Shown piece by piece: positions 1,418 to 62,793 of a stretch of DNA of 64,000 nucleotides (the first letter of the stretch is position 1; each line of letters opens with the position of its first letter). The notes beneath the pieces are model-generated. The model was not told where the DNA came from. It saw nothing but the letters and a program-made list of their open reading frames with translations, and did no database searches. Position numbers and translations under genes: made by a program. Origin of the DNA: Sabellastarte sp. h YS-2021 (taxonomy: Eukaryota; Annelida; Polychaeta; Sabellida; Sabellidae); NCBI GenBank assembly GCA_964017235.1, contig OZ024929.1, positions 24,549,464-24,613,463 of the forward strand. Direction: 5' to 3'.

Positions 1418-3170
1418 AAGCGTCCCTGAAAGGGCGCTTATTTGGTTTCGCGTCAGTTTCCTCGCCGCCACCGCATTGTGGTCTCCCTTGAATATCTCCC
1501 TTATTATTGCAAGCTTTTTAACCATATATGGCAGTTATATACCTTAGGCGTGGGAAAATTTTTCCACATGCTTAAATTTGACCTTTGATCTTTATCAAGG
1601 TCACATGATCAAAAAATAGTTTTTTCGGGTACACCCGCCCGTCATCGCAGTTCAGGAAAATCTACTGACCATAGAGGCTTGTTACTTCATACACATGTTT
1701 ACACTATCAAAAACATGAGCTGATTAGATTTTGGGAGCAATCTGATGAAAATTGACCGATTTATGAGTGATTTTCTCACAGGTACCAATCAGAAAGCTTA
1801 AAATTCATGTGAACCCCCTATTATCTTCTTAAGTATTGCATTTAGAGCCATAAAATGTATTGGGAGGTAGTAGGAAACCATATGTGGAGAGTCTAGAAAG
1901 CAAGTCAAATTTCCCCCTCGACCCCCCTGTAGGGGTCAAACTGGGCTAGCCAATTTCATCTTTTCCCCTTATATCTCCTTTATTCTTTCTTCTAGAGCTT
2001 GAGAATGTGTTAAGAGGTATTGGGAAACCATATGTGAAGAGTCTAGATAGCCGGTCATATTTACCCCCAGACCCTCCCTTATGGGTCAAACTGGGGTCAT
2101 AAAATAGCCGATTTTGTGTTTTTGCCTTTTATCTCCTTTATTCTTGCTTCTAGAGCTTTAGAATGTATTAAGAGGTATTGGGAAACCATATGTGAAGAGT
2201 CTAGATAGCTGGTCAGATTTACCCCCGGACCCCTCCTTATGGGTCAAACTGGGGGTCATAAAATAGCTGATTTTGTGTTTTTGCCTTATATCTCCTTTAT
2301 TCTTGCTTTTAGAGTTTAGAATGTAATAAGAGGTATTGGGAAACTTTGTGTGAAGAGTCTAGGTAGCTGGTCAGATTTACTCCCGTATCCCCCCTTATGG
2401 GTCAAACTGGGGTTATAAAATAGCCGATTATGTGTTTTTGCCTTTTATCTCCTTTATTCTTGCTTTTAGAGCTTTAGAATGTATTAAGAGGTATTGGGAA
2501 ACCATATGTGAAGAGTCTAGACAGCCGGTCATATTTACCCCCAGACCCTCCCTTATGGGTCAAACTGGGGTCATAAAATAGCCGATTTTGTGTTTTTGCC
2601 TTTTATCCCCTTTATTCTTGCTTTTAGAGCTTTAGAATGTATTAAGAGGTATTGGGAAACCATATGAGAAGAGTCTAGATAGCTGGTCAGAATTACCCCC
2701 AGACCCCCCCTTATGGGTCAAACTGGGGTAATAAAATAGCCGATTATGTGTTTTTGCCTCTTATCTCCTTTATTCTTGCTTTTAGAGTTTTAGAATGTAT
2801 TAAGAGGTATTGGGAAACCTTATGTGATGAGTCTAGATAGCTGGTCAGATTTACCCCCGGATCCCCCCTTATGGGTCAAACTGGGGTCATAAAATAGCCG
2901 ATTTTGTGTTTTTGCCTTTTATCTGTTTTATTCTTTTAGAGTTTTAGAATGTATTGAGAGGTATTGGGAAACCTTATGTGAAGAGTCTAGATAGCTGGTC
3001 AGATTTACCCCCCCCCCCCCCTTTATGGATTAAACTGGATTCATCAAATAGCCGATTCTGTGTTTTTGCCTTATATCTATTTTATTCTTGCTTTTAGAGA
3101 TTTACAATGTATTCAGAGGTATTGGGAAACCTTATGTGAAGAGTCTAGATAGCTGGTCAGATTTACCAGA
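1418..3170 (+). repeat. R1 element: terminal hairpin plus 158-bp tandem array
   Basis: The element opens with a near-perfect hairpin at 1418-1439 (arms AAGCG-CCCT and AGGG-CGCTT, one bulge), followed by a flank containing TTGGTTTCGCGTCAG. A tandem array then runs from about 1800 to 3170. The anchor GGGTCAAACTGG starts at 1933, 2083, 2241, 2399, 2557, 2715 and 2873, with a decayed copy at 3027, so spacing is 158 bp for five consecutive steps (150 and 154 at the ends). The last units are most diverged, and a C-run at 3008-3020 interrupts the array. The flank motif after the hairpin resembles the one next to the R4 hairpin (TTTGGTTTAGCGTTAG read on the minus strand), which suggests a common origin. 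I infer a non-autonomous hairpin-ended mobile element; no protein is encoded. Confidence 0.75.
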
Positions 3171-3261
3171 TAGATGTGTTCAAAGCATTGTGTCATAAAC
3201 TTCTTGCCTTTCTAAAGGCTCACATTTTACTATGCTTTTTTCTAAAATGTAAATAGATATA

Positions 3262-3713
3262 CCGTAAATGACCTATTTAGCGCACAGTGCGCTAAGCAAA
3301 GTCTATTTTTATTCAATATTTGTTGGGAAAAAATGTCCCTTTTAGCGCACCCACCATGAAACACTTTCCGGGATGAAGTTTCGGTCAATCCGGTAGAAAA
3401 ACGGTGTTTCGACATTTAGAAATACCCACTTCCTGTAAATATGGCGGTAGATGAAAACAAACTCGAAAGTCTTGATAAAAATGTGAATTTATTAAGTAAA
3501 AATATGTAAATTATATAGAAAAATATGTGGATATTGAGAAAAATTAAGAAAGGTAAGATTTAAGCTGAATAATCCATCATTAGTAACCTTTTATAACCAA
3601 CCGCGATTGTGCACTGTCTGATTGGTCATCCACTAGAAGTTGCCAAGTATATTGCTTTGAAAAGAGATAGGGTGCGGTTACAAGGGCGGATGCGCTAAAT
3701 AGGTCATTTACGG
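3262..3713 (+). mobile_element. MITE with perfect 23-bp terminal inverted repeats
   Basis: Positions 3262-3284 and 3691-3713 are perfect inverted repeats (23 of 23 bases, starting CCGTAAATGACCTATTTAGC). TA dinucleotides at 3260-3261 and 3714-3715 fit a TA target duplication, as in the Tc1/mariner superfamily. Inside, 3441-3509 is a short open frame of 22 codons starting MAVDENKLES, preceded by CACTTCCTGTAAAT. A diverged relative inside the DIRS copy at about 34.2 kb keeps the same ATG region. I infer that the element is an internally deleted derivative of an autonomous transposon and retains the transposase start region. The 23/23 match implies recent activity. Confidence 0.8.
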
Positions 3714-3715
3714 TA

Positions 3716-4990
3716 TATGGCATTTATAAAGCACTGTTACTCTTTAATTAAGTAGTTTTATGGTGTAACTTTCGACCTATTATAAGTATTGATGCTTTAT
3801 GTATTCTTAGCCAGAGCATTTATTCAATTAACTTTTCGCAATTTATGACCACAGAAAACAAAATAAAGCTTAAATTTTTCTTTCATGTTAATGCATGAAC
3901 TTCCACACTGTCTGCTTAACTTTCACTTCTTCTCTCAGCACGGCATGTTTTTAGTTTCAAAAACCTTTTTCTACTGTATATCATATTGCAGTGAACCTTT
4001 TTGGGACGCTTAGTTTTTGTTAGCAAAAACATTTTTCTAGTTTTAGAAGAGTTTAAAGACTGAAAATGAAAATTGCAAAAAAATTCTGTTTTAACACCCC
4101 ATTTTGGATTTTACAAGTTGATGCTTCGCACTGTTACAGTAATACTCTAAATTAGGTATTTGTGTTCCTTTCAGTGGTAATGGAAATTTTTACCCATATA
4201 ACAGGACCCTCTGTTGTGTAGGAGTGTAAATATAGAGAGTCAGAAATGTGAAAATCAGCACTGAGAAAACCCAATTATTTCCCTCACCTCTGAAGTGGAG
4301 GGGTGAGGGTAGTGTTCTCAGGTCTGTTTGTCCATTCACCTAACTCAAAAACTATATGTTGGTCCTGGGGCATACTTTCACACAAGGTGGGGTCTAACCT
4401 TGGCTTGGTCCTCCTCAGACATACAGTCTGGATGTGGATGGCAAATCCACATTTGTTTTTGTGTTTTTCATCACTGTCTGTGGCCAGATGTTTGTGCATT
4501 CTCTGATATTGCTTGGTTTTAATTATGGAACATGCTGATCTTGTGATTTTAATGACAATCTTATGCTTTTCATATCGCAGTGCCAGAGTTTCAGTCAATA
4601 ATTCCTCTTAACAATGTCTAATTTGAAGGGGTAACCAAGTTTGATGTGATGATTGTCTTGTGATGATGATTTGCTACTGTATCCTACCAATTCCTACTCC
4701 TATATCCTACTATTTCTTAGTACTATTACTTTACTACTATACCTGTCATCACTCTTGGAGGTGGAGATTTAGTTTAAATCAGAATATCTGTGATTGAGAG
4801 TAAACTTCCTGAAGGTCATTGATTTGGGTATACAGCAGAGATATCCTGACAATTCCACATGAGTGTCCTTAACTATCAAACTGACATTTGTGTGACATGA
4901 CCTATAAACTAAAGTACGCACTAGGAATTTAATGCATGTTGATAAACTCTTAAGGATACATGTACTCACATTGCCCAGGCGAATAAAATT
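3716..4990. other. No recognisable feature
   Basis: AT-rich single-copy-looking sequence. Open frames at 4284-4598 on either strand show no family resemblance and no splice context. I see nothing else to annotate. Confidence 0.3.
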
Positions 4991-4997
4991 TATTTTG

Positions 4998-5586
4998 ACC
5001 ATGGACTTTCATGGATGCCCATGGATGTCCAGGGGCACAAGTCCATGGATGTCCATGGATATCCATGTTTTGTTAAATGGCATCATGGTCAAAGACCATG
5101 GATGTACTGACCATGGTCAGAGTCCATGGTCTGTCAAAACATGGTCTAGTCCATGGACTTTAACCATGGCCATTGTCCATGGATGTCCATGTTTTGTTAA
5201 ATGGCATCATGGTCAAAGATGATGGACTTTGAAACCATGGTTTACTCCATGGACTTAACAAGTTGTCCATGGACTTTAACCATGGCCATTGTCCATGGTT
5301 GTCCATGTATATCCATGTTTTATTAAATGGCGCCATGGTCAGAGACCATGGACTCACTGACGATGGTCAGAGTCCATGGTATGTAAAAACATGATCCAGT
5401 CCATGGACTATAACCCTGGACTTTATCCACGGTCAGTGTGTATGTATGTCCATGGACATCCATGTTTTATTACATGAAACCATGGTAAGAGACCATGGAC
5501 TCAGTGACCATGGTCTAGGCCATGGACTTTGACCATGGTCAGGTTTCCATGATATAGTCCATGGACTATACATGGTTGGCCATGGA
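4998..5586. repeat. CCATGG-saturated palindromic repeat cluster 1
   Basis: By hand count about 27 copies of the six-base palindrome CCATGG lie in roughly 590 bp, where about 0.15 would be expected by chance. They are set in an irregular tandem repeat: the segment CCATGTTTT-TTA-ATGG recurs at about 5063, 5187, 5313 and 5460 (steps near 124, 126 and 147 bp). Phrases such as TCCATGGACTTTAACCATGG recur in both orientations, so the single strand can fold into many alternative hairpins. Open frames here (for example 4932-5222) merely translate the DNA repeat, giving runs rich in Trp, Met, His and Pro, and are not taken as genes. Confidence 0.8.
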
Positions 5587-5624
5587 CCCTGACAATGTTC
5601 AATATGCAAGCATGTTTGTAGATG

Positions 5625-7190: not shown

Positions 7191-7214
7191 ACATGGACTC
7201 GATCTTAACATAGA

Positions 7215-7565
7215 ATCCATGGTCAACCATAAATACTTAATTGCGGTTCACGGTCAACCATGGACCAGAGGACAGAGTCCATTGTCAACCATGGACCAGA
7301 GAACAAAGTCCATGGTTAACCATGGACCAGTGAAGAAACTCCATGGTCAACTATGGACACTTGAATGTAGTCCATGGTCAACCACGGACAACTAGACTGA
7401 GTCCATGGTCTAACATGGACACTTACATGCAGTCCATGGTCAGGACATGCAAAACCATCATGTCCATGGTTTTTGATGGTCTGGTCCTTCGTACGAGTAT
7501 GGATTTTGATGGTCGTTCATGGATATCCATGGTCGACCATCAAATACCATGCAGTCCATGGTCAT
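7215..7565. repeat. CCATGG-rich palindromic repeat cluster 2
   Basis: About 12 CCATGG sites in 350 bp, mostly within AGTCCATGGTCAACCATGGACCA-like phrases spaced about 30-45 bp. The words are related to cluster 1, but the order and spacing differ, so this is a separate array of the same type rather than a recent copy. It runs directly into a SINE-like repeat at 7626. Confidence 0.75.
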
Positions 7566-7625
7566 TCATGGTCACCATTTCGCCGGGGTACTGGATCAAA
7601 GATCAAAGCTAGGGTTCTGCATCTA

Positions 7626-7745: not shown

Positions 7746-8053
7746 ATTACTGGTATAACTGCATATGTCATTGTGACACTTAAAGCCAGCTCTGGTAAAG
7801 ATAAAACAAATATAAAACAATATACTAATGGTTAAAGTAAGTGTTGCCATCTTACGATCTGTATCTCTACTCTTATAAACACTTGACAGGTGGAGTTATC
7901 AGTTGACCAGTCCAACAACTAGGATGTATTAGGCATCTTTGTTACCCCTCCAGTGTGAGAAATTTTTGTTTTTCTTTAGCTGTTAGATAAATGTCAAACT
8001 GCTAGATTGCAAGCAAGACGTTTGTTCATCACCATAAACACTAGCTCCATTTT

Positions 8054-9485
8054 TACCCCACAGCCCTTAAGGGCTGTTGGGGTATTGTTTTCACCCATGG
8101 TGTCCGGATGGTCAGGTGGGCAGCGGGAAAAAGTTTGTCTGGCCTGTATCTCAGAAACCGTAAGGTGTAGAAAGTTGATACTTAGTAGGGACATTGGTTT
8201 GGAGGTGTAGGTGTGCAACGTCATGGTCTGACCTTGATTTGACCTTGCCGTAGTGACCTTGAGTTTGAAAATTTTGTCGGGGCTATATTTCAGAAACCGT
8301 AAGGTGTAAGAAGTTGATACTTGGTAGAAACATTGGTTACGGGGTGTAGGTGTGCAATGTCATGGTGTGACCTTGATTTGACCTTTGACCTTGCCGTAGT
8401 GACCTTGACCTATAAAATCTTGTGCTGGCTATATCTTGGAAACCACAAGGTGTAGGAAGTTGATACTTGGTAAGGACATTGGTTAGGGGGTGTAGGTGTG
8501 CAGCGTCATGGTATGACACTGATTTGATCTTTGACCTTGCTGTAGTGACCTTGACCTGTAAAATCTTCTCTGGGCTATATCTTGGACATTCTAAGGTGTA
8601 GGTACTTAGTAGGGACATTGGTTAGGGGTTGTAAGTGTGCAACATCATGGTGAGACCCTGATTTGACCTTTGACCTTGCCATAGTGACCTTGACCTATAA
8701 AATCTTGTCCGGGCTATATCTCGGAAACCACAAGGTGTAGGAAGTTGATAGTTGGTAGGGACATTAGTTAGGGGGTGTAGGCATGCAACGTCATGGTCTG
8801 ACCTTGATTTGACCTTTGACCTTGCTGTAGTGACCTTGACCTATAAAATCTTGTCTGGGCTATATCTCAGAAACCGTAAAGTGTAGGAAGTTGATACTTG
8901 GTAAGGACATTGGTTAGGGGGTGTAGGTGTGCAGCGTCATGGTATGACACTGATTTGATCTTTGACCTTGCTGTAGTGACCTTGACCTGTAAAATCTTCT
9001 CTGGGCTATATCTTGGACATTCTAAGGTGTAGGTACTTAGTAGGGACATTGGTTAGGGGTTGTAGGTGTGCAACATCATGGTGAGACCCTGATTTGACCT
9101 TTGACCTTGTCATAGTGACCTTGACCTATAAAATCTTGTCCGGGCTATATCTCGGAAACCATAAGGTGTAGGAAGTTGATACTTGGTAGGGACATTGGTT
9201 AGGGGATGTAGGTGTGCATCGTCATGGTCTGACCTTGATTTGACCTTGCCGTAATGACCTTGAGTTTGAAAATCTTGAATTGTCTTGTTTTAGTACTTTA
9301 TCTTTACATATGTTTTCTTTCTCTTAGATGTTATTTTTTCTATTTAAACATTATTTGGATCTTTATATAAGTGACACACCGCTGAAAGTATCCCGGTCTT
9401 TGTACTGTTTCACTACTTCTACATGTCATGGTGTTGAAAACTATTTCCCCAGGCTGTGGGGTATGGGCATCTCTGATGCTATTTT
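8054..9485 (-). mobile_element. R2 element, complete copy (hairpin, 8-unit array, flank)
   Basis: A hairpin at 8054-8084 (13-bp stem, arms TACCCC-ACAGCCC and GGGCTGT-GGGGTA around TTAA) marks one end. An array with unit anchors at 8220, 8359, 8505, 8644, 8790, 8936, 9075 and 9221 follows. The steps are 139 or 146 bp. A higher-order duplication is visible: about 8501-8740 recurs almost unchanged at 8932-9170, a 431-bp shift. The other flank (9340-9485) ends in the palindrome GCATCTCTGATGC (9467-9479) and recurs in inverted orientation at 30208-30340 and 41290-41430. Most units contain TGACCTTTGACCT, a DR1 arrangement of AGGTCA half-sites. I infer a non-autonomous Helentron-like element about 1.43 kb long; there is no coding capacity. 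Confidence 0.75.
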
Positions 9486-9921
9486 AGACTATTGCAGTTT
9501 CCGATGTTTACCATTGTCACAGAGATGTTTTGCAGTTTGACTAAGTAAAATGTTTGTGTCCCTTTTGGCAGCTTTGATTACATTGGGATAGGCAATCAGT
9601 ATTTTCCACCTGTTGTCATGAGCTAGAATCAAACCCAACACTAAAGAGGTGATGGTCATGTGATCAATTGCCAAATTTGGAAACAAATGGATGGGTGAGC
9701 TTTCACCCTTACTATGTGGATTATACAACCTTTTAATATCATTTGGTTACTTTATCTTGTTTTAATCTTTTTTTTAGTTATTTATTTTTATATACTTTTT
9801 GGGGGGAATGGAGTTATTTACCAAACTTAAGTTATTGACAGTGTACATGGTTAGTTTCAAAAGTATTGCAATAAGCACCAACTGTACAGAACTGACTTTT
9901 ATAAACAAGTATTTCATTATT

Positions 9922-10575: not shown

Positions 10576-10719
10576 GATAAGGTTTTACCTCCCCATTTAA
10601 AAGTGAGGATCATACTTAGACAGGCCCAGTAGAATTGTCTTGCTTTAGCGTTGTATTAAAACTGATTGAATGTGTGCTTGCTAAGCAGCTATTAGAACAG
10701 GTGCCTTAATGATGCAAAA

Positions 10720-11735: not shown

Positions 11736-11739
11736 TGAT

Positions 11740-28817: not shown

Positions 28818-30155
28818 AACTAGAAATAGGACGCCCTGTTGATAGTAGCTGAGACATATGAATAGAAACAGGATAGCATAGAAGAACACACATTATCATG
28901 TGTAATGTCCACCCCATGAACCTTTTGCCAGAATTGTACAGTAGTCTTACAAGACCCTGTTTCATTTGTGAAATATATCAATGATGGTTACATATTTATT
29001 AGTGTACATGTAAATTATTTCAGCTTCATGCCTTTTTGCATTGGCTGGGTCGAAAATTTTGACGAAATCACTCTATCTTGCACGGTTAAGAAGATAGAAG
29101 CAAATTTCTGTTTTTCTATTTTTGGCAAAAATTTGAAAATTCAAAATGCCCGCCATTTTTGGGAAGAGGAAAATTTTTTGAAAATTGCCAAGAGTACATT
29201 TCTTAGATACCCTGTGGGTCGAATATTTCACCGAAATAACTCTATTTTGCACGGTTAAGGCAAATTTGTGTTTTTCCATTTTGGGCCAAAATTCGAAAAT
29301 TCAAAATGGCCGCCATATGTGGGGAGGGGAAAATTTTTTGAAAATTGCAAAGAGTACATTCCTTAGATACCCTGTGGGTTGAAAATTTCGACGAAATCGC
29401 TCTATCTCGCATGGTTAAGGAGATAGAAGCAAATTTGTGTTTTGCCATTTTTGGCAAATATTCGAAAATTCAAAATGGCCGCCATTTTTGGGGAGGGGAA
29501 AATTTTTTGAAAACTGCAAAGATTACATTCCTTAGATACCCTGTGGGTCGAAAATTTCGACGAAATCGCTCTATCTCGCACAGTTAAGGAGATAGAAGCA
29601 AATTTGTGTTTTGCCATTTTTGGGGAGGGGAAAATTTTTTGAAAATTGCAAAGAGTACATTCCGTAGATACCCTGTGCGTCGAAAATTTCGACGAAATCG
29701 CTCTATCTCGCACAGTTAAGGAGATAGAAGCAAATTTGTGTTTAGGAGATATGAGCACATTTGCCTTTTTCAGTATTCAAAATAGCCAATTACTCATTTA
29801 TTTAATTAATTACTCACTCATCTATGAAGCAATTACCCCCAAAAGCAATCCCATACAAGCTATTAACCCAATGAACCTCCATACCAAATTTCAGAAAGAT
29901 AGGTTTAATAGCATTCCTTAAAATGTCTGGAAACCAAAGAGATACTCAAAAGTAGCAAAGTAGCTATTACTCAGTTAGCTATAGAGCTATCATCACCAAA
30001 AGCACTCCCATACAAGCTATTAACCCAATAAACCTGCATGCCAAATTTGGTAAAGATAGGATAAGAACTGTTGCCTAAAATGTCTGGAAACCAAGTGGGA
30101 CGCCGGACGGCGGAAAAAGCAAAAATAATATGTCCACCCCCAGTGGGTGGACATA
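28818..30155 (+). mobile_element. R3 element, copy 1 (169-bp array, hairpin end)
   Basis: It begins AACTAGAAATAGGACGCCCT, identical to the start of copy 2 at 55066. It carries ATGTCCACCC at 28915-28924 and ends in the hairpin TGTCCACCC-GGGTGGACA at 30131-30153, so the left motif is an inverted copy of the end. Between them lie about four units with AAATGGCCGCCAT anchors at 29151, 29311 and 29480. A fourth unit, shortened by a deletion, follows near 29610. After the array, flank sequence includes GACGCCGGACGGCGGAAAAA. Subterminal inverted repeats plus a terminal hairpin are known for Helentron-type non-autonomous elements; assignment to them is inference. Confidence 0.7.
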
Positions 30156-30207
30156 ATAATGAGACTGCATAAATAGATTGCTGTTTGCAGGAGAGATCTC
30201 AACATGT

Positions 30208-32085
30208 AAAAATAGCATCAGAGATGCCCGTACCCCATAGACAGGGGAAATAGTGTTGGACACATTGAAGAATAGAAGAGATGAAAAAAGTAAAAAAGTT
30301 AAGTACTCCTTCAGAAAAACTAGTGTGGGGGTTGAGGTGCAGGAGACATAAAACCTAACATAACAAAGAGAAAATGTATGCCAGACAACGTATCAAAACA
30401 AGACAATTCAATAACAAAACTAGACCTACGCATCGGAGAACTCATGCAAATGTGTATCCCCCAGAAAGACAACTCACAAAAACAGCCACTGAACCATCGT
30501 TTGACCTTGAAGGAGGGGCCAAAGGTCAAATCTGACATCAGAAGATTCCCAGCCCACAATATCCTGCAAGTTGGTTTCACATTGCGAACCTCTAGGATCA
30601 ATAATAAGCGAGTTATAAGCCCTTTTAAGTTTAGCTGTTCTCGTTTGACCTTGAAGGAGGGGTCCAAGGTCAAATCCAACCACATCAAAAAATTCCCAGC
30701 CAATGATTTCCTATAAGGTGGTTTCACATTGCAAACCTCTAGGACCAATAATAAGCAAGTTATAAGCACTTTTAACTTTGGCTATCCTCGTCTGACCTTG
30801 AAGGAGGGGTCTAAGGTCAAATCTGACCACATCAAAAGATTCCCAGCCCATGATTTCCTATAAATTGGTTTACCATCCCAAACCTCTAGGACCAATAACA
30901 AGCGAGTTACAAGCACTTTTAAGTTTGACTATTCTCGTTTGACCTTGAAGGAGGGGTCCAAGGTCAAATCCGACCACACCAGAAGATTCCCAGCTTATGA
31001 TTTCCAAAAGGTTGGTTTACCATCCCAAATGTCTTGAACCAATAATAAGCGAGTTATGAGCACTTTTAACTTTGGCTATCCTCGTTTGACCTTGAAGGAG
31101 GGGCCCAAGGTCAAATCCGATCACACCAGAAGATTCCCAGTTCATGATTTCCTATAGGTTGGTTTACCATCCCAAGTGTCTTGGACCAATAATAAGCGAG
31201 TTATAAGCACTTTTAACTTTGGCTATCCTCGTCAAATCTGATTCGCAGCACATGATTTCCTATAGGTTGGTGTCACATTGCAAACCTCTAGGACCAATAA
31301 TAAGGGAGATATAAGCACTGTTAAAGTCTGCTATGTGGGTTACTTTGGCACTGTGGATGACCTTGAATTAAGAGCTTCAAGGTCAAATGTCTGCAAGGTT
31401 GTAGAGGACATATATATCTGTTATACATATCACCTATGAAGACATTCAACCTTCTACCTATGAGAAAAATGTAGATGATTTTCAAAGAAATGCCCGCGGC
31501 GGCCATCTTGTTTTTCAGAATGACGCTTTCCTTCCCAGAGAAGCTTACCCCCAATGAAGATATCCTGCAAATTTGGTGAACCTAGCTGATGTAGTTTTCC
31601 TCTGAGAGCGTTAACGCCGAAAATCTCTCTACACGCAGCGGCGGCGTAGCTAACGCTAAACCAAAGTATCCACCGGATGCCTCCGGTGGATACAATTATA
31701 GCATTAATATGTAAAGCAAAAGCTATGATCTCTAAATTTATTAATTGATCCATTTCTTAACTGAAGTATATCTGTCAACAATTACTATAATAGTTACAAT
31801 TACGTAAAATAAATAAAACAATCAGTTGCCGCAATTCATATGGCTTTGTGCTAGAATAAATATGACTCAAAGGTGGCAACTGAAAACATTCTTGCAGAGC
31901 CAAGGTGAAACATCAATCCTAGGCCACATCATGATCACCTACAACCTCCAACCAATATACCTACAATGTAATAACTTCCTATATCTTACAGTTTCCAAGA
32001 TTTAGCCTGGACAAGATTTTGAAGATCAAGGTCACTACAGCAAGTTCAAAGGTTAAATGTCTAGATATGTACACTTATATTATGA
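30208..32085 (+). mobile_element. R2 element interrupted by an R4 array element
   Basis: The R2 left flank (palindrome GCATCAGAGATGC at 30215-30227) is followed to about 30410 by sequence shared with 41.3-41.5 kb. R2-type sequence resumes at about 31700 and includes a single array unit at about 31890-32070 (ACCTCCAACCAATAT and TCAAGGTCACTACAG). The R4 element at 30420-31693 sits between the two parts. I infer nested insertion. Confidence 0.55.
30420..31693 (+). mobile_element. R4 element, copy 1 (146-bp array, perfect 12-bp hairpin)
   Basis: Starts near ACTAGACCTACGCATCGGAG, which recurs at 61680. Array anchors TTGACCTTGAAGGAGGGG start at about 30501, 30645, 30792, 30939 and 31085 (steps 144-147 bp); a truncated unit follows. 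The right flank from 31300 matches 41.75-42.2 kb and 62.7 kb. It ends in the hairpin at 31666-31693, arms GTATCCACCGGA and TCCGGTGGATAC, all 12 pairs intact. Each unit carries TGACCTTGA and, about 15 bp on, AAGGTCAAA. Confidence 0.7.
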
Positions 32086-39800: not shown

Positions 39801-42800
39801 CGCCCTGGTAAGGTTGATACCCATTCTGTTTCCTTGACCCGTATCCGCCATGGCCCGATCTGTCTCAAATTTGGCAATTTCCTCCTCAGCCCTATGGACC
39901 ATATCATCCGGGAAAAGACCAGAGGAATTGAGAGGGCTATTACGCAGAGCACACCAAGTGTCCGGCTTTATGCCTTTTTTAGGTGATCCAAGTAGGCATC
40001 CCGTCTAAGGAGCATAATGTTCTCTATCTGCACAAACAGGATATCCGCTAGGAAACAGTGTGAGGCAGGAAATGTGAGGAAGATAAAACCCCTGTAGGTG
40101 GGGGATGAGTAACCTTCAATTGGACCGGGGAAAACACCGGTGCAATATTTCCTACTGTTGAAACAGGTTGAGCAGAATTAGGGTTAGAACCCGTGGTTAG
40201 CAAAGCCTCAATATGAGCAAATTGAGTAGACCACTCATCTTTTAAGTCAGATATTTCCTTCTTAAATGAGTCTTCCACAGAAACATTACTTGGTGAAGAA
40301 GCAACAGAGGCTACAGACTGATTTAAGTCCACGGGGACCTACCACACTGACCTGTGACGGATCAATCAAAACATCACTTTTGGAAGATTTCTTTTCCTTC
40401 CAAAGTTTATAAGTGGGCGTGGCCAGTTGTTTCCGCTGCTCTGGTGTCAGCATCAAGCAAGCTGCGCAGTCGTCCTTCCCTTGTACACAGGGGTCTGATC
40501 CAGAACCCTTCTCTGCAACGTGCACAACGAACGTGAGTATCAAAGCCGGCCATGATGTGGCCGCAGCTTCCTTTTCTCTGGCCGGACGATGCCATGATAT
40601 CCAAAAACAAACGTCACAGTAATATAAGCACCTCACACAAATAACAGTATATAAACTGAATTTAACCCTTGACTTGAAAAAACACTTTCAAGAAGTTTCG
40701 CACCAAACGAAAAAGAGGCCATGACGTCATGGCCACCTGGCGAGTACAGGAAGCATTAGCCCTCTAGTGAGTGGAGAGGGCGGTACCGGTCCGACCGGAG
40801 ATATACCCAGGACGTCTTTTTCTGACGTTTGGCAGACTGGCTCGCGCCGGCATATAGCAGGAGTCTGTTAGGTAAGAAGTATTAACCCAATAAAAATTTG
40901 GATTAATTTTTCTACGAATTATTTCTCTAAAAATTTAGATAGGCATCTAGTCTGTGATGACAAGGAAGGTCAAAGTAAGAGCTGTACATCCCACTCAACA
41001 GTCAGGGTCACACTGGGACAGGCCCTCACTATTGCCACTTGTGGGAGTCAAGTCCACACAGAAGTATTAGATACTAAACTTGCTAACCATAAGGCTACCA
41101 AGGACATCTTTATAGAGACAAATAAACTGAAGCCTAACTATGAGTAAGTTTTGCATCCCTCTATACAAGCCCTGTCCTCCGAAACTGCAACCAATGGAAA
41201 CAAACTTTTTTGATATCCAATTAAAGTCTCAGATTCAATCTCAGCATCTTTAACACAACTTGTTTTGGAACAAATACTGTATAAGTTAAGAAAAGAGCAT
41301 CAGAGATGCCCGTAGCCCACAGCCTGGGGAAGCAGTTTTCAACACCATGAGATATAGAAGTAGTAAAACAGTACAAAGATCAGGATACTTTCAGTGCAGT
41401 GTTAGCTATGTTTAAGTAGAGAAAATAAGTTCTAAGAGAAAGAAAATGTGTGTAAAGATACAGTATTAAAATAAGACAATTCAATAGCAACATGACAGCA
41501 TTAATCAGAAAACTAAAAATTATGAAGCTGTAAAATTTATTAATTGGAGAATAGCTGTCAATGGAAATAGCACAATTATGTATGTACATATAAGAATATT
41601 AATAAGTTGTAGCAATCAATATATTATTGTATTGCATTTGTGGCCAGTTGCAAGATGCATCCACCGTAAAATGACAAGTAACATGGTTTTGAAGATAAAC
41701 AGCATTTTAATAATTGAGCTATAAGAACTTTTGGCTTTTTCCCATTGCAAACCTCTAGGACCAATAACAAGGGAGATATAGGCACTTTTAAAGTCCGCTC
41801 CGCGGGCTACTTCGGCACTCTGCGGATGACTTTGAATTAAGAGCTTCAAGGTCAAATGTCTGCAAGGGGGAAGGGGACATGTATATCTATTATACATATC
41901 ATCTATGAGGAAATACAACCTTCTACCTATGAGAACAAGCCATTAGAAAAAGGTAGATACTTTTCAAAGGTATGTCCGCAGCGCCCATCTTGTTTTACAG
42001 AATGAGGCTAATTTCAGTCCCAGAGAAGCTTACCTCCCAATGAAGATATCCTTAAGCACTTTTAAATTTGGCTCTCCTCCTTTGACCTTGAAGGAATGGC
42101 CCAAGGCCAAATTTGGTGAACCTAGCTGGCGTAATTTTCCACAAGAGTGTGTTAACGTCAAAAATATCTCTATGCGTGGCGGCGGCGGCAGCATAGCAAA
42201 CGCTAAACCATAGTATCCACAGGATGCCTCCAGTGGATACAATAATACGGGAGAAAAGGCACTTTTTATGACTAACAAAGAAATGCCCGTGGCAGCCACA
42301 TTGTTTTTCAAAATGAGGCCAAAAATATTCCCAGGAAAGATATTATGGTTATGAATATCTCCTGCAAATTTAAGAAGTCTTGCTATAATATTTTCTTCGT
42401 TAGAGCGTTAACGGTGAAATCTCTCTACACACTGCTGTGGCGGCGGAATAATGAAGCTATTTGGTGGATATAAATATGGCAGGTGAACACACTTCGGCAG
42501 AGCCAATGTTAAAGGTCCGAAACCTGATACACCTACACCCTGTAACCAATGTCCCTACCAAGTGACAACCTTCTACGCCTTACAGAATCCAAGAAATAGA
42601 CAAGATTTTAAAACTCAAGGTCACTACGACAAGGCTAAAGGTCAAATCAAGATTACACCATGATGTTGCACACCTACAACCCACAATCAATGTTCCTAAC
42701 AAGCAAGAATTTCCTACATCTTACGGTTGCTGAGATAAAGCCTGGATAAGACTGTATAGGTCAAGGTCACTACAACAAAGTCAAAGGTCAAATCAAGGTC

Positions 42801-43701
42801 ACATTATGACGTTGCATACCTACAACCTCTAACCTATGTCTCTAATAAGTATCAACTTATTACATCTAACGGTTTCCGAGATATAGCCTGGAAAAGATTT
42901 TAAAGGTCAAGGTCACTATGGAAAAGGTCAAATCAAGGTTAGCCTATAATGCTGCACAACTATGACCCCCAACCAATATTACTACCAAGTATCAATTTCC
43001 TACACCTTACGGTTTCCATGATAGAGCCCAGACAAGATTTTCAAACTCAAGGTCACTATGGCAAGGTCAAATCAAGATCATATTATGACATTGCACACTT
43101 AAAACCAGCAACCAATGTCCCTCCCAAGTATCAACTATCTACTACACCTTACAGTTTCCGACATATTGCCCGGACAAGATTTTATAGGTCAAGGTCACTA
43201 TGGCAAGGTCACAGGTCATATCAAGGTAACAACCTGACCTTGCACATCTACAACCCCCAACCAATGTCAATACCAAGTATCAACTTCCTGCACCTTATGG
43301 TTCAAGATATTGCCCAGACAAATTTTTAGAGGTCAAGGTCACTACGGCAAGGTCATAGGTCAAATCAAGGTCACTTCCTACACCTTATGGTTTCTGAGAT
43401 ACAGCTCAGACCAATATTTCCTGCAGCCTGCCTGCCCATGCACCCGCCCGCCCATCCGGACACCACGGGTTAAAATAATACCCCAACAGCCCTCAAGGTT
43501 CTACCGTACTTGAAAATAGTTACACCACTCACCTTCATAACCCTCCACATACACCTTGTCCCCTACACTGACACCAGTAGGTGGCTCTATGATCTCTACT
43601 TTTTCTGGCGTACTGCCGCACATGATCATCCCCTCGGAGTAAATACCTCGCATCTTGGCCGGCTTCAAGTTACACATGAAAATAGCGATACGGTCACGCA
43701 T
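36728..43701 (-). CDS. AIMP1: AIMP1 (EMAPII-type tRNA-binding protein), last two exons
   Basis: Two minus-strand exons, 43533-43701 and 36728-36897, join in frame through a split Gly codon (G + GT). Together they encode 112 residues of the C-terminal EMAPII/tRNA-binding domain. CNLKPAKMRG, EGMIMCGSTPEKVEIIEPP and GDKVYVEGYEG come from the first exon. LNPKKKIFEQVQPDL, GVATYKGVPW and the terminus TMRDTQIK come from the second. The end resembles AIMP1 (family ends in TMSNSGIK-like sequence) more than the tyrosyl-tRNA synthetase C-domain. In animals AIMP1 is a scaffold of the multi-tRNA synthetase complex and can be released as the cytokine EMAPII. Upstream exons, including the rest of the tRNA-binding fold, were not found up to 47.7 kb. 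The 6.6-kb intron is nearly all mobile DNA. The stop codon overlaps an AATAAA hexamer (36727-36732). Confidence 0.88.
36988..37133. repeat. DIRS copy L, right inverted terminal repeat
   Basis: Reverse complement of 40733-40886 with a few substitutions and small indels. It lies about 90 bp from the AIMP1 splice acceptor. Confidence 0.85.
37135..37856 (-). pseudogene. DIRS tyrosine recombinase N-terminal part, truncated
   Basis: Two overlapping frames carry the linker (VDLFATRYNCKLPQFVSPVP) and the recombinase core-binding region (QDRKLQPSTIDGYRSAIADK, NLNRLLDSFHTDRPKGC). The sequence ends there at the terminal repeat, so the catalytic Arg, HxxR and Tyr are absent. Copy S at 33253-33855 continues past the corresponding point. 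Confidence 0.8.
37902..39588 (-). pseudogene. DIRS reverse transcriptase-RNase H, frameshifted
   Basis: The 38713-39588 frame has a Cys-rich N-terminal segment (about residues 1-45, KHCSVCLKDAKCSVC), then RT blocks: FIVPKPNQKWWPILDLSALN, MSLDFSDAYFHI and LPFGLSTAPT. A frameshift near 38830 moves coding to the 37902-38819 frame. That frame has the catalytic YLDDWL box, GWVMNLKKSELEP and the RNase H blocks IFTDASNEGWGAHLD, INFLELKAVLLAL, VATDNTTVVAYIN and HIPGWLNVIADKLSR. The catalytic aspartates of both domains look present; only the frame is broken. Positions between gag and the recombinase are as expected for DIRS. Confidence 0.88.
39590..40600 (-). pseudogene. DIRS gag-like ORF, broken
   Basis: It opens with MASSGQRKGSCGHIM, then a short Cys/His segment (HVRCARC, then KDDCAACLMLTPEQRKQL in another frame). 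It continues through 40048-40332 (EISDLKDEWSTQFAHIEALL, possibly coiled coil) and a Gly/Arg/Pro-rich end at 39585-39902. At least three frame changes are visible, so no intact product is made. The Cys/His N-terminus is usual for DIRS ORF1; function is inferred from position. Confidence 0.65.
40733..40886. repeat. DIRS copy L, left inverted terminal repeat
   Basis: Counterpart of 36988-37133. An intact TGACGTCA palindrome (40722-40729) lies at its inner edge, as in copy S. Confidence 0.85.
40988..41105 (-). mobile_element. tRNA-derived SINE, antisense copy in the AIMP1 intron
   Basis: ACTCAACAGTCAGGGTCACA, GCCACTTGTGGGAGTCAAG and CTTGCTAACCATAAGGCTAC align with the copies at 7.7, 11.7 and 18.8 kb in the same order. 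Confidence 0.5.
41290..43497 (-). mobile_element. R2 element with R4 segment (composite) in the AIMP1 intron
   Basis: R2 flank with GCATCAGAGATGC (41297-41309) and flank sequence to about 41690. An R4 right-end segment follows at 41730-42240, with its hairpin at 42213-42240 (11 of 12 pairs). A second R4-like tail lies at 42290-42475, and an R2 array at 42490-43450. The array anchor TCAAGGTCAC sits at 42614, 42761, 42907, 43048, 43189 and 43333. The element ends at about 43497 with half of the R2 terminal hairpin (minus strand GAGGGCTGTTGGGGTATT); the other arm is missing. Orientation is opposite to the 8-kb copy on the plus strand. Confidence 0.65.
43533..43701 (-). CDS. AIMP1: AIMP1 penultimate exon
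   Basis: Flanked by acceptor TTTTCCAG (43702-43709) and donor GTGAGT (43532-43527); 169 bp. The ATG at its first base aligns with an internal residue of the family (before the RDRIAIF strand), so it is not taken as the start codon. Confidence 0.9.
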
Positions 43702-55065: not shown

Positions 55066-57108
55066 AACTAGAAATAGGACGCCCTGTTGCTTGTAGCTGC
55101 GACATATGAATAGAAACATGATAGCATAGAAGAACACACATTATCATGTGTAATGTCCACCCTATCAACCTTTTGCTAAGAAGATAGAAGCAAATTCCTG
55201 TTTATCTATTTTTGGCAAAAATTCGAAAATTCAAAATGGCCGCCATTTTTGGGAAAAGGAAATTTTTTTTGAAAATTGCCAAGAGTACATTTCTTAGATA
55301 GCCTATGGGTCGAAAATTTCAACGAAATAACTCTATTTTGCACGGTTAAGGCCAGTTTGTGTTTTTCCATTTTTGGCAAAAATTTGAAAATTCAAAATGG
55401 CCGCCATATGTGGTGAGGGGAAAATTTTTGGAAAATTGCAAAGAGTACATTTCTTAGATACCCCTTGGGTCGAAAATTTCCCCGAAATCGCTCTATCTCG
55501 CATGGTTAAGGAGATAGAAGCAAATTTGTGTTTTGCCATTGTTGGTAAAAATTCGAAATTCAAAATGGCCGCCATTTTTGGGGAGGGGAAAATTTTTTGA
55601 AAATTGCAAAGATTACATTTTCTTAGATACCCTGTGGGTCGAAAATTTTGACGAAATCGCTCTATCTCGCATGGTTAAGGAGATAGAAGCAAATTTGTGT
55701 TTTGCCATTTTTGGCAAAAATTCGAAAATTCAAAATGGCCTCCATTTTTGGGGAGGGGAAAATTTTTTGAAAAGTGCAAAGATTACACTCCTTAGATACC
55801 CTGTGGGTCGAAAATTTCGACGAAATCGCTCTATCTCGCACGGTTAAGGAGATAGAAGCAAATTTGTGTTTTGCCATTTTTGGCAAAAATTCGAAAATTC
55901 AAAATGGCCGCCATTTTTGGGGAGGGCAAAATTTTTGGAAAATTGCAAAGAGTACACTCCTTAGATACCCTATGGGTCGAAAATTTCGACAAAATCGCTC
56001 TATCTCACACAGTTAAGGAGATAGAAGCAAATTTGTGTATTGCCATTTTTGGCAAAAATTCTAAAATTCAAAATGGCCGCCATGTTTGGGGAGGGGAAAA
56101 TTTTTTGAAAATTGTAAAGATTACATTCCTTAAATACCCTGTGGGACGAAAATTTCGACGAAATCGCTCTATCTCGCACGGTTAAGGAGATAGAAGCAAA
56201 TTTGTGTTTTGCCATTTTTGGCAAAAATTCGAAAATTCAAAATGGCCGCCATTTTTGGGGAGGGCAAAATTTTTGGAAAATTGCAAAGAGTACATTCCTT
56301 AGATACCCTGTCGGTCGAAAATTTCGACAAAATCGCTCTATCTCACACAGTTAAGGAGATAGAAGCAAATTTGTGTTTTGCCATTTTTGGCAAAAATTCT
56401 AAAATTCAAAATGGCCGCCATTTTTGGGGAGGGGAAAATTTTTTGAAAATTGCAAAGAGTACATTCCTTAGATACCCTGTGACTCAAAAATTCTGTCCAA
56501 ATCGCTCTATCTCTTACGGTTTCTGAGATATTAAGATTTTTTCGTTTTTCGCAAAAATTCAAGATGGCCGCCAAAAGTGGCGAAAATTGAAAATTTTCAA
56601 TTTTGTACAGAATACTCTTCTACTACCCTGTGAGTCAAAAATTCTGTCGAAATCGCTCTATCTCTTACGGTTTCTGAGATATTAGCAAATTACTCAAAAG
56701 TAGTACTGAAAATACACAATGAAGTACCTAAATGGCTATTACTCATGTACTGACAAAGCTATCAGTCCCAAATGCAATACCAAGCGAGCTATGGACATAA
56801 CAATCTTGTATTCAAAATTGTAGTAAAATATCTTTAATTATCTTGGCTTAAATGCACGGAAACCAATGGGTACTGAAAATAGCTGTACTTAAGTATTACT
56901 CAGTAAGCAAAAGAGGTACAACAGCCAAAAGCAATCCCAAGCAAGCTACTGACCCAATAAGCCTGCATACCAAATTTGGTGACAATAGCTCTAATACTTT
57001 TCCTTTAAATGAGCGGAAACCATGCGTGACGCCGGACATCGGACGCCGGACATCGGACGGCGAAAAAAGCAAAAATAATATATCCACCCCCCAGGGGGGT
57101 GGACATAA
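55066..57108 (+). mobile_element. R3 element, copy 2 (longer 169-bp array)
   Basis: Same start (AACTAGAAATAGGACGCCCT) and subterminal ATGTCCACCC (55153-55162) as copy 1. Unit anchors lie at 55241, 55402, 55570, 55740, 55909, 56078, 56247, 56416 and 56569: steps 161, 168, 170, then 169 four times, then 153. Outer units are more diverged. The right flank carries GACGCCGGACATCGGACG twice in short tandem. The end is a hairpin at about 57081-57106 (arms ATCCACCCCCC and GGGGGGTGGACAT). Copy 2 has about nine units against four in copy 1, so array length changed after or during spread. Confidence 0.75.
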
Positions 57109-57170
57109 TTCTAATTCGACTTTTATAGTGCTTAATTTCCACTGAGTAGTGGACTCTAAGGCACAACAAG
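57109..57170 (+). repeat. Interspersed repeat, copy 1
   Basis: TTCTAATTCGACTTTTATAG, then GTGCTTAATTTCC and GGACTCTAAGGCACAAC. Matched at 59178-59241 with about 10 differences; a more diverged trace lies at 50262-50300. Family unknown; SINE-sized. Confidence 0.45.
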
Positions 57171-57701: not shown

Positions 57702-58204
57702 TAGGGATGGGTCGGTATGAAAAATATGTACATCGGGAGGTCGCCAATGCAAAACCGTACCGAATTCGGGACTCCGCGTTTTAGTACACCCCAAACAAAC
57801 ATGGATGTTTCCTCATAACAACGTCGCATATAAAAGCTCCTAAATGCACAAAATATGTGATGAAAACGTATAATATCTTTATATTTCTGGTTTCTGTCCA
57901 ATATTTTAAGTTTTCCTTCATTTATATGAGTTGACAAATGAAATTGAGGTTGTAAAGTGTCGTAACCAAAACATGGCAGTTCTGCTCAATGCATCGATGT
58001 AAAAGTAATCGATGTAAATGGACGAAAATATGGGATAAAAGCTTATAATTTCTTCAGATTTGGGGTACCGGTATGTTTCTAATATTTTAACTCTTCCTTC
58101 CATTATATGTGTTAGCAAGCGAGGTGGCGGTTTTAAAATCTCATCACGGTATTTCACTAAAATGCTCTCGATACCGAGATACCGGACCTACCGACCCATC
58201 CCTA
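57702..58204. mobile_element. hAT-like MITE
   Basis: Terminal inverted repeats TAGGGATGGGTCGGTA (57702-57717) and its exact reverse complement (58189-58204), 16 of 16. The eight bases outside the ends (TTCTGTAT and TTCAGTAA) agree at six positions, fitting the 8-bp target duplication of hAT elements after some decay. 503 bp, no transposase. Confidence 0.7.
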
Positions 58205-60339: not shown

Positions 60340-60454
60340 GGGCCATATTTTACAAAGGTCTTGGTTAACCTTTAGGCTTACATTGGTGATATTTGTACAT
60401 AAAAGTCAAGCCAAAATCATTTGGAGACAGTAAGACCTTTTACAAATACGGCCC
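60340..60454. mobile_element. Short foldback MITE (115 bp)
   Basis: Start GGGCCATATTTTACAAAGGT and reverse complement of the end GGGCCGTATTTGTAAAAGGT form inverted repeats of about 23 bp with few mismatches. The end sequence resembles PIF/Harbinger-type MITEs, but no clear 3-bp target duplication is seen, so the class is open. Confidence 0.55.
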
Positions 60455-61142
60455 CTGGTCAAACTTGGCACAAAGAATCAGAGAATACGGGCCTGTATGC
60501 AACAAACCAATCCAATACAATATGCTCAGATACCAACCCTTTTTACACTCGGAAAAAATACAAACAATTTTTAAATTGGACTGGCAAAAAGGATGTTCCC
60601 TCCATTTTAACTAGAGGTCTATGCTCTATGCTGACACCTACCAATCTAGTAAAAGAGAATTCTTCAAAACAAAAGTATTTTCAAATTGGTTTGTATCATT
60701 TTATTTCATACTCAGGATGTGTCAATACTCTATACTACATTTACCATAGTTTAATTTTATTATCATGTTGTCCTTTGTACATTTGGGTCTTTATAGAACT
60801 GACACCTGTTTGTCAATCAATTGTTATTGGTTAATTGATGCAACTACTTTGGGTTAAAATGTTATTTATTTAAATAGGATGAGACAATTAACTCTTTCAG
60901 AAGACATTTAGAAGTAGAAAGTGGTTTTTGGTGAGCAGAATGAAGCACCCCAGGCTTCAAATTTCTTGGACAATCAATATGAAACTCAGTGTAGCCAATG
61001 AGTTTGTACTCCTATGTTTTGCAGGCCTTCACTTGTGCTTTTGAACAGACCATATATTACTTTGGCTGGAAATACTGCTAGTAATATTATTCCACAAGAT
61101 TTAGTTTGTCTAGTAGCTTATATATCCTCTAGCTATTGTAGT

Positions 61143-61400
61143 TTTTAAGCGTGAGCTCTAGCGAGGCACACGCTTCTTGAGATCACTTTTGTTTCCCCTT
61201 TTTTTGTCTCCGGACTTTCATGAATTGTGGCGTAGCGTGATGAGTAGCCATCACTTCACTGAAGTTAAGCAGCAATGGGCTACGTTAGTACTGGAATGGG
61301 TGACCACTTCAGTGCACTACTCGTGTCTCTGATGACAATGCGGCTAGTGCTAGTAGACTGAAACCCCTTTTGGCCTTTTCTTTTTTTTTTGTTTTCACAG
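61143..61400 (+). mobile_element. 5S rRNA-derived SINE or retropseudogene
   Basis: From about 61226 to 61328 the order of blocks follows 5S rRNA: GAAGTTAAGCAGC (box A region), then GTTAGTACTGGAATGGGTGACC (intermediate element and box C region). The outer stem is degenerate and the length about 100. A body ending in a T/CT-rich run follows to about 61400. An imperfect hairpin (AAGCGTG-CACGCTT) lies just upstream at 61148-61176. Divergence from real 5S is too high for a working gene, and no array is present. Confidence 0.65.
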
Positions 61401-61679
61401 TCAAGCACTAAGATGTTAAACCTGTTTGTATCAGACTGTAACCTAAACAAGCTAATATGGTTTAACTGCACTGTGGTGAAGAAATGAAAACTTTTATTGA
61501 CAAAATACTAGTATCTATAATATCTTTATATATTTCTTTTGTTATCTGATTAAACTTGGTTAACTGCACTTCTAGTCTTCTACAGAATATATTTTTGGTA
61601 AATTGGAGTCAAGATTATGTTTAACTGCGAAGAATTTTTCAGTAATAATTCCATGTACTCTTGAGTACTCTAAGACTGA

Positions 61680-62793
61680 ACTAGACCTACGCATCGGAGA
61701 ACCGATGCAAATTTGTATCCACTGGAAAGACAAATCACCAAAGCCAGTGAACCATTGTTTGACCTTGAAGGAGGGGCCAAAGGTCAAATTTAACATCAGA
61801 AGATTCCAAGCCCAAGATTTCCTATGAGTTGGTTTCACACTGCAAACCTCTAGGATCAATAATAAGCAAGTTATAAGCACTTTTAGGTTTGGCCGTCCTC
61901 GTTTGATGTTGAAGGAGGGGCTCAAGGTCAAATCTGACCACATCAAAAGATTTCAAGCCCATGATTTCCTATAAATCCTCTAGGACCAATAATAAGTGAG
62001 TTATAAGCACTTTTCAGTTTGGCTATCCTCGTTTGACCTTGAAGGAGGGGCCCAAGATCAAATCAGTCCACACCAGAAGATTCCCAGCCCATGATTTCCT
62101 ATATTTTGGTTTACCATCCCAAACCTCTAGGATCAATAATAAGCGAGTTATAAGCACTTTTAACTTTGACTATCCTCGTTTGACCTTGAAGGAGGGGCCC
62201 AAGGTCAAATCCGACCACACCAGAAGATTCCCAGTCCATGATTTCCTATAGGTTGGTTTACCATCCCAAACCTCTAGGATCAATATTATAATAAGCGAAT
62301 TTTTAGCATTTTTAAGTTTGGCTATCCTCGTTTGACCTTGAAGGAGGGGCCCAAGGTCAAATCTGACCACATCAAAAGATTTCCAGCCCATGATTTCCTG
62401 TAGGTTGGTTTACCATCCCAAACCTCTATGACTAATAATAAGCGAGTTATAAGCACTTTTAAGTTTTTCTATCCTCATTTGACCTTGACAGAGGGGCCCA
62501 AGGTCAAATCCGACTACACTAGATGATTCCCAGCCCATGATTTCCTATGTCTTGGTTTACCATCCCAAACCTCTAGGACCAATAATAAGCGAGTTATTAG
62601 TAAGTGTGGCTATCCTCGTTTGACCTTGAAGGAGGGGTCCAAGGTTAAATCTGACAACATCAGAAGATTCGCAGCACATGATTTCCTATAGGTTGGTTTC
62701 ACATTGCAAACCTTTAGGACCAATAATAAGGGAGATATAGGCACTTTTACAGTCCGTTATGTGGGTTACTTTGACACTCCGTGGATGACCTTG
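61680..62793 (+). mobile_element. R4 element, copy 3 (7-unit array, 3' truncated)
   Basis: It starts with ACTAGACCTACGCATCGGAG as in the copy at 30420. Array anchors lie at 61759, 61903, 62033, 62180, 62332, 62479 and 62620 (steps 130-152, mostly 141-147). The right flank begins at about 62700 (GGGAGATATAGGCACTTTTA) and matches copies 1 and 2, but the similarity stops near 62793 before the terminal hairpin. Confidence 0.7.

What the first reader, a model, noticed from the sequence alone, without database searches (positions are those of the whole stretch)
1418..62793. Four different tandem-array families mounted on one hairpin-ended chassis
R1 (158 bp), R2 (139/146 bp), R3 (169 bp) and R4 (146 bp) have unrelated unit sequences but the same layout. 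Each has a palindromic hairpin with a stem of about 9-13 bp at one end (1418-1439; 8054-8084; 30131-30153 and 57081-57106; 31666-31693 and 42213-42240). A short T-rich flank with a CG-rich patch follows, then a tandem array, then another flank. R1 and R4 share the post-hairpin motif TTTGGTTT(C/A)GCGT(C/T)AG. R3 also has an inverted copy of its hairpin arm near the other end. Subterminal inverted repeats, a terminal hairpin and a central array of about 160 bp are known features of non-autonomous Helentron-type elements (HINE, CvA/pearl group) in bivalves. Seeing four unit types on one plan suggests that arrays are exchanged or captured while the mobile ends are kept.
Basis: partly seen in the sequence, partly recalled or inferred. 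Interest (0 to 1): 0.72.

Follow-up and report, generated by a model that had tools for sequence, protein, structure and literature searches.

The report
Helentron ends carrying interchangeable repeat arrays
The repeat blocks in this window are copies of non-coding rolling-circle jumping genes, probably in a clam; their ends and repeat arrays usually stay together, but one young family joins one family's ends to another family's array, and a protein-coding relative is still present in the genome.

Summary
R1-R4 are real and are mobile elements: HINEs, the non-autonomous form of Helentron rolling-circle transposons. The hairpins lie at insertion boundaries; empty sites were found for all four families (R3's match is short). 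'Unrelated units' is wrong in part: R1 and R4 units are homologous, and arrays of eight families, one of them in an autonomous Helentron, share a ~30-44 bp box, one per unit. R4's 5' end resembles R1's and R3's; R2's resembles none detectably. In the sampled copies heads stay with their own arrays, but a young family (RX; its tail at 40 listed places with at most about one mismatch; one copy read end to end) has R1-type ends around R4-type arrays, so re-pairing has happened. An autonomous Helentron (DUF6570, Rep, PIF1, endonuclease-like tail) with the same plan and its own array has deletion derivatives; its 3' end is letter-identical at 40 listed places. It is not the partner of R1-R4, whose partners were not found. 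HINEs with tandem arrays, and related flanks with unrelated arrays, are published in oyster.

The parts
1417..4043 (+). R1 HINE: 5' palindromic subTIR hairpin 1418-1439, head flank to ~1817, R1 array 1818-3167, tail 3168-3261 and 3714-4043 ending CTAG|TT (interrupted by another inverted-repeat element at 3262-3713)
8050..9490 (+). R2 HINE, complete: 5' hairpin 8054-8084, array 8129-9277, tail with inverted subTIR and GCATCTCTGATGC palindrome
28820..30157 (-). R3 HINE, complete: 5' hairpin 30126-30158, array 29046-29743, 3' end CTAG at 28820
30209..32058 (-). old R2 element (tail piece 30209-30296, array piece 31901-32058) apparently split by the R4 element
   Evidence: empty-site match (81%) to an R2 flank
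30421..31696 (-). R4 HINE, complete, nested in R2: 5' hairpin 31666-31693, array 30497-31324, tail with inverted subTIR and a palindrome that is imperfect in this copy, CTAG|TT
41291..43498 (-). R2 element (tail 41291-41481, array 42529-43419, head 43443-43498) with R4 pieces 41738-42442 inside (hairpin 42213-42240)
55068..57110 (-). R3 HINE, complete: 5' hairpin 57079-57107, array 55177-56681, 3' end CTAG at 55068
61682..62797 (-). R4 HINE lacking its 5' hairpin end: tail 61686-61757, array 61757-62749, last 35 nt of the head flank

Best explanation
R1-R4 are HINEs, short non-coding Helentrons copied by rolling-circle replication. Shown: T-rich, TT-type target without a clear target duplication; palindromic 5' subTIR at the left end; array; inverted 3' subTIR and a second palindrome at the right end; nested and head-to-tail copies. 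Shown for a sister family in the same genome (A): a 12.3-kb element with one open 2245-codon frame (DUF6570, Rep, PIF1, endonuclease-like tail) and its own ~164-187-bp array has internal-deletion derivatives that keep both ends and the array. Inferred: a Rep-helicase-endonuclease like A's nicks and copies whatever lies between matching ends, so cargo is free to vary. Arrays mostly diverge together with their ends, but one young family (RX) has R4-type arrays between R1-type ends, most simply by recombination or template switching between related arrays. So the chassis is the Helentron end set, and arrays can be re-paired with it.
For: Sharp edges at the hairpin in scored copies of R1-R4. Spanning empty-site matches for 11 of 44 tested complete elements, 8 of which I hold as clean, at least one each for R1, R2, R3, R4 and A; RX empty site in an A element, no substitutions. 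subTIR pairs: R1 10, R2 12, R4 12 bp exact; R3 11 of 12, A 10-11 of 12. CTAG at the 3' end in 25 of 27 readable R1, R3 and R4 copies. Similar heads R1-R4 and R3-R4 (0 of 500 shuffles each). A: domains, five places at 97-100% over 1,100 bp, ends. Deletion derivatives: L089 (98.1% and 99.5% to the autonomous 5' and 3' parts), L035. A's 170-bp 3' end is 100% identical at 40 listed places, 28 of them without a PIF1 match within 10 kb on the 5' side. RX: head 77.5% to R1 over 218 bp, tail 85% to R1 over 40 bp, R4 arrays; 45 RX units have median 93.2% identity to the R4 consensus against 93.9% for 179 units of R4 elements.
Against: No autonomous element with R1-R4 ends was found: of 24 PF14214 matches, 4 are family A, 11 others were examined on 3 kb of their 3' side only, 9 not at all. 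R3's palindrome lies ~68 nt from its 3' end, outside the 8-35 bp reported for mite HINEs, and R2's is closer than 8. R1, R3, R4 and RX end in CTAG, a Helitron or proto-Helentron trait. RX was read at both ends in one copy only; two more copies were seen to have the R4-type array. R1 and R4 arrays are homologous, so the exchange is between relatives, not unrelated arrays. In the annotated sample (which does not include RX) 87 of 87 heads with an adjacent array had their own family's array, but that sample was chosen by similarity to the window copies.
Confidence: 0.87

Rival explanations
1. Pure co-descent: ends and arrays always evolve together, and RX is an old intermediate, not a product of exchange.
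For: 87 of 87 heads with an adjacent array carry their own family's array (RX not in that sample); R1 and R4 arrays and heads are both similar.
Against: RX units are about as close to the R4 consensus (median 93.2%) as R4's own units (93.9%), while R1 and R4 consensus units share only 93 of 161 positions; RX's head matches R1 (score 231) and not R4 (28; R2 28, R3 24). Descent alone does not easily give R1 ends with an R4 array.
Confidence: 0.1
2. Arrays are foreign satellite DNA captured independently by each family ('filler DNA').
For: R2 and R3 units show little overall similarity to R1 and R4; the oyster authors discuss capture and replacement (PMC7492417, first part of the discussion read).
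Against: A shared box, one per unit, recovered blind in six families (its information content exceeds all 60 shuffled sets), and an array in the autonomous element itself, suggest a common inherited unit.
Confidence: 0.27
3. Ordinary MITEs or satellites: TIR elements moved by a DDE transposase, with satellite cores.
For: Such bivalve elements were first described as MITEs (Pearl, as told in PMC7492417).
Against: Subterminal rather than terminal inverted repeats, second palindrome, TT target without a clear duplication, an autonomous Rep-PIF1 element with the same layout.
Confidence: 0.03

Closest known systems
Cg_HINE elements of the Pacific oyster (PMC7492417; abstract, introduction, results sections on repeats, elements, grouping and insertion sites, and first part of the discussion read)
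   Same: Arrays of ~140-180 bp units between modules with subTIRs; TT insertion; one array orientation; a group with related flanks but unrelated repeats; double arrays.
   Different: Here the 5' subTIR is itself a palindrome; an autonomous relative with matching deletion derivatives is found (the oyster study could not relate autonomous elements to its HINEs); an explicit re-paired young family; a box shared by arrays that look unrelated.
HINE-Mo and Helentrons of mite and Culex (PMC4067079, passages read)
   Same: Palindromic subTIRs near the 5' end, inverted copy and separate palindrome near the 3' end, T runs of variable number, non-autonomous derivatives of a Rep/helicase/endonuclease element.
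   Different: R1, R3, R4 and RX end in CTAG, which that paper reports for a proto-Helentron of Phytophthora; R3's tail is longer.
DINE-1 of Drosophila (PMC2374699 and PMC4067079, passages read)
   Same: subTIRs, GTCY microsatellite (in A), variable central repeats, 3' stem-loop, TT target.
   Different: DINE-1 has a conserved core outside the array and no palindromic subTIR; its central repeats are reported not to share homology among species.
BIV160 / Cg170 satellites of bivalves (as described in PMC5139131, passages read)
   Same: A large divergent satellite family sharing two conserved motifs, linked to Helitron-type elements.
   Different: Motif letters were not available to compare with the box found here.

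Membership tests
HINE / Helentron | subterminal inverted repeats of ~11-15 bp | tested here: met
   R1 10, R2 12, R4 12 bp exact; R3 11 of 12, A 10-11 of 12
HINE / Helentron | short palindrome near the 3' end, 8-35 bp from it | tested here: inconclusive
   R1 and R4 ~10 nt: met; R2 ~4-5 nt and R3 ~68 nt: outside the range (sequence)
HINE / Helentron | insertion in T-rich/TT sites without target duplication | tested here: met
   empty sites; extra Ts make a TT duplication hard to tell from Ts belonging to the element
HINE / Helentron | ends shared with an autonomous Rep/helicase/endonuclease element of the genome | tested here: inconclusive
   met for family A; for R1-R4 no partner in the 3 kb read at 11 other Rep loci, of 24 matches
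Helentron (autonomous, family A) | Rep, PIF1 helicase and AP-type endonuclease in one frame | tested here: met
   PF14214 and PF05970 in the same 2245-codon frame; PF03372 in that frame E 1.4e-4 but 22.2 bits against a 24.5 cut-off
canonical Helitron | 5' TC and 3' CTRR, palindrome ~11 bp from the 3' end, A|T target, no subTIRs | tested here: not met
   3' CTAG present in R1, R3 and R4 (25 of 27 readable copies) but no 5' TC, and subTIRs present; CTAG absent in R2 and A
HINE / Helentron | transposition by a rolling-circle, single-strand mechanism | not testable with these tools
   inferred from protein domains and head-to-tail copies (L024)

The most novel reading that the evidence does not exclude
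The arrays are not passive passengers: Helentron arrays here, that of the autonomous element included, are built around one ancient ~30-44 bp box (about TATCTCgaAAAcCGTttGacnnATngaaTTcAAACTTGg), one per unit and in one orientation relative to the ends in every family whose ends were read. It would be a cis-acting part (for example a helicase or host-factor loading site, or a preferred recombination point) that both keeps arrays on the chassis and lets arrays be exchanged, as in RX.
Probability: 0.27. Interest if true: 0.72.

Novelty: new member of a known kind. Interest (0 to 1): 0.5.

Why it matters
Oyster genomes are full of short satellite-like arrays on HINEs, but there no autonomous partner could be tied to them and most arrays were held to be unrelated (PMC7492417). 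Here one genome offers an autonomous Helentron with near-identical deletion derivatives (recent activity), a young family joining one end type to another array type, and a box common to arrays that look unrelated. That makes 'are HINE arrays cargo or working parts?' testable.

Tried and rejected
Rejected: autonomous partner for R2 in L080 and L088; both have an R2-like tail and array in reverse orientation ~0.8 kb after the endonuclease frame, but the R2 3' end points at the frame, so the coding region lies outside it; old nested copies are likelier. Rejected: R3-like and R4-like pieces in L081 as ends of that Rep element; they look nested (by eye).

Against or limiting the box: phases were first chosen by eye (one search is mildly circular); R5 also gives a reverse-strand match (p 0.027 at width 30, 0.0075 at width 44), R8 one at width 44 (p 0.03), R3 is weak at width 44 (p 0.06). 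R8, R9 and three other arrays gave no significant forward match. Orientation relative to element ends is known only for R1-R4 and A (and R5 by eye in L081); the strands of R6 and R7 are simply those fetched, so 'same strand' says nothing for them. Box copies were not found in heads or tails: seven forward tests p 0.21-0.98; two of seven reverse tests p 0.033 and 0.017. Of 66 unit pairs, 7 same-strand and 4 opposite-strand comparisons had 3 or fewer of 300 shuffles as good, one opposite pair (R8 and a coding tandem repeat) 0 of 300, so weak single pairs such as R2-A or R1-R3 prove nothing alone. Exact box patterns gave 0 matches in viral contigs and an A-type pattern with up to 3 mismatches 0 in the window. 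Recalled, not tested: a similar sentence beside GTCY repeats in arthropod elements. Of the 11 empty-site matches, I hold 8 as clean; L024 is a tandem self-match, L055 and L030 are weak.
Full report
What was checked. The window lies in a 1.786-Gb genome of 647 contigs, with contigs of 75-194 Mb among those hit. A bivalve, perhaps a venerid clam such as Mercenaria, is my inference from recall of genome sizes and from element type; no call names the species.

Ends. Searches of the genome with an R1 query (1,001 bp, part of the array included), an R2 head, an R4 head and the R3 head region each scored 40 candidates of 2,038-5,358 found in the first look (counts are lower bounds). Taken on the T-rich strand the plan is: TT - palindromic subTIR - head flank with GC-rich patch - array - flank - inverted subTIR - second palindrome - end. 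R1: TAAGCGTCCC / GGGACGCTTA and GTTTTTGTTAGCAAAAAC. R2: TACCCCACAGCC / GGCTGTGGGGTA and GCATCTCTGATGC. R4: TGTATCCACCGG / CCGGTGGATACA and GCATCGGTTCTCCGATGC. R3: TTATGTCCACCC / GGGTGGACATTA and ACACATGATAATGTGT. That is the layout reported for mite and Culex HINEs, with subTIRs 2-4 nt from the 5' end and T runs of variable number (PMC4067079, passages read). R1, R3 and R4 end in CTAG|TT in 25 of 27 readable copies (one R4 copy cut by its locus end left out).

Insertion boundaries. Of 45 complete elements found in the sampled DNA, 44 could be trimmed and tested, and 11 had an uninterrupted match spanning the joined flanks. I hold 8 as clean, among them R4 within an R4 array (L047), R1 in L006, R2 in L017, R3 at 55068-57110 (48 bp only) and the A derivative in L035. 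No clear target duplication is seen; T runs leave one or two Ts ambiguous.

Units. R1 and R4 consensus units align in register over their length (score 84, 0 of 300 shuffles; 93 of 161 positions identical). R3-R7 and A-R6 are likewise similar (0 of 300). A ~30-44 bp box (about TATCTCGAAAACCGTTTGACC.ATNGAATTCAAACTTGG) was first seen by eye. Leave-one-out matrices found it as the best site at the expected place in 8 of 8 families (width 30: p 0.0025 to 0.03), with no significant forward match in R8, R9 or three other arrays. At width 44 R3 is weak (p 0.06), and R5 and R8 give reverse matches. A blind search in six families (R1, R2, R3, A, R5, R6) with both strands allowed returned the same site in all six in an 800-start run (information content 25.47); a 150-start run scored 24.84 against a largest value of 24.37 in 60 shuffled sets run with 150 starts. 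Orientation relative to the ends is known for R1-R4 and A, where it agrees, and by eye for R5 in L081; for R6 and R7 it is not known. The box was not found in forward direction in heads or tails. While checking this report I cut the odds of the novel case from 0.30 to 0.27 because of the narrower orientation evidence, and raised the capture rival from 0.25 to 0.27.

Heads and tails between families. In the first 110 bp (R2 85, A 65; R3 a single copy), R1-R4 and R3-R4 are similar (0 of 500 shuffles each); R1-R3 is not directly (303 of 500), and the pairs with R2 or A are not significant (30 to 429 of 500). Of ten tail pairs only R2-A stands out (5 of 500).

Pairing. In 335 kb of annotated DNA (before RX was fetched), 87 of 87 heads with an adjacent array had the array of their own family (A 6, some of them internal head copies; R1 8; R2 38; R3 2; R4 33); 3 heads had none and 1 lay at a locus edge. 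R2 and R4 loci were fetched with head-only queries, but the best-scoring copies were taken, so divergent pairings are under-sampled.

Re-pairing. A stretch fetched for another purpose (L091) held an R4-type array followed by an R1-type tail. The 246-bp tail region is present at 40 listed places, all printed as 100%; the bit scores (444 and 440) imply about one mismatch at most (1521 candidates). Following one copy upstream on contig C1 gave a ~5.9-kb element, RX: R1-type 5' end (77.5% over 218 bp), R4-type array, ~1.8 kb of other sequence, a second R4-type array, R1-type 3' end (85% over 40 bp). The 45 RX units have median 93.2% identity to the R4 consensus against 93.9% (179 units) for R4 elements. 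The RX copy on C1 sits in an A element, and another A copy gives the empty site: no substitutions, with gaps for T-run length and for five element bases that the script left in.

Autonomous relative. PF14214 has 24 matches. One family, A, has five places at 97-100% over 1,100 bp. Its C3 copy spans about 168666685-168678958 (3.1 kb of the middle not read by me): palindromic subTIR, GTCY microsatellite and ~164-187-bp array, then one frame reported as 2245 codons with DUF6570 and Rep, PIF1 and an endonuclease-like tail (22.2 bits, under Pfam's cut-off), then the 3' end shared by three copies. The frames reported at the other PF14214 matches of A are shorter. L089 is a derivative that joins the autonomous 5' part (98.1% over 1.35 kb) to its last 207 bp (99.5%); L035 holds an older 517-bp one. 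The 170-bp 3' end is 100% identical at 40 listed places (1201 candidates); 12 of 40 have a PIF1 match within 10 kb on the 5' side and 28 do not. So A was active recently and has non-autonomous offspring of the R1-R4 plan. A's ends differ from R1-R4. In 3 kb on the 3' side of 11 other Rep matches, no in-line R1-R4 end was accepted; in 3 of these 11 I saw no endonuclease-like frame, so the stretch may have missed the element. 9 matches were not examined.

Literature. Searches on Helentron with bivalve/tandem repeats, mini-me core, Pearl/conserved motif, mollusc/rolling-circle, clam/autonomous, HINE/autonomous partner, and Mercenaria with Helitron (listings only) showed no title or abstract start describing an autonomous partner of array-bearing HINEs in a bivalve. 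The oyster study reports that it could not relate autonomous elements to its HINEs, and describes related flanks with unrelated repeats (PMC7492417). A related paper says that BIV160 and Cg170 monomers share two conserved motifs (PMC5139131, passages); I could not compare letters. A later oyster paper was seen in passages only (PMC11136912). Most subscription papers are not in the library.

Verdict. Known kind, HINE; new members with three additions of interest: an autonomous relative with near-identical derivatives, a re-paired young family, and a shared array box. The function of the box and the mechanism of exchange are inference.

Noticed in passing
window 3262-3713: An inverted-repeat element (CCGTAAATGACCTATTTAGCGC at both ends, TATA apparently duplicated) sits in the R1 tail; R1 copies such as L006 lack it.
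   Followed up: partly
L080 and L088 (reverse strand), ~0.8 kb after the endonuclease frame: Two diverged Rep-helicase-endonuclease loci each have an R2-like tail and array in reverse orientation at a similar distance; chance nesting or a structural part is unresolved.
   Followed up: partly
L024 1300-1590, L017 1430-1590: R2 elements joined head-to-tail with no flank between, as expected from read-through in rolling-circle copying.
   Followed up: no
L062, L029, L038, L078: R4-type and R5-type arrays lie side by side in one orientation, suggesting elements with two arrays or old nesting.
   Followed up: no
L093 (reverse strand) ~110-1400: The middle of RX holds ~1.2 kb bounded by inverted TGACGTCA-type repeats and a tRNA-like B-box stretch (by eye): captured DNA or a nested element.
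   Followed up: no
window 5044-5516 and 7252-7442: Clusters of CCATGG palindromes and 31-bp ACCATGGACCAGTGG repeats, unrelated to R1-R4.
   Followed up: no
R3 head flank (window 56692-57110) and L081: The long R3 5' flank looks by eye like degenerate R5-type units (CTGAGTAATAGCTACTTT), so R3 elements may hold two arrays.
   Followed up: no
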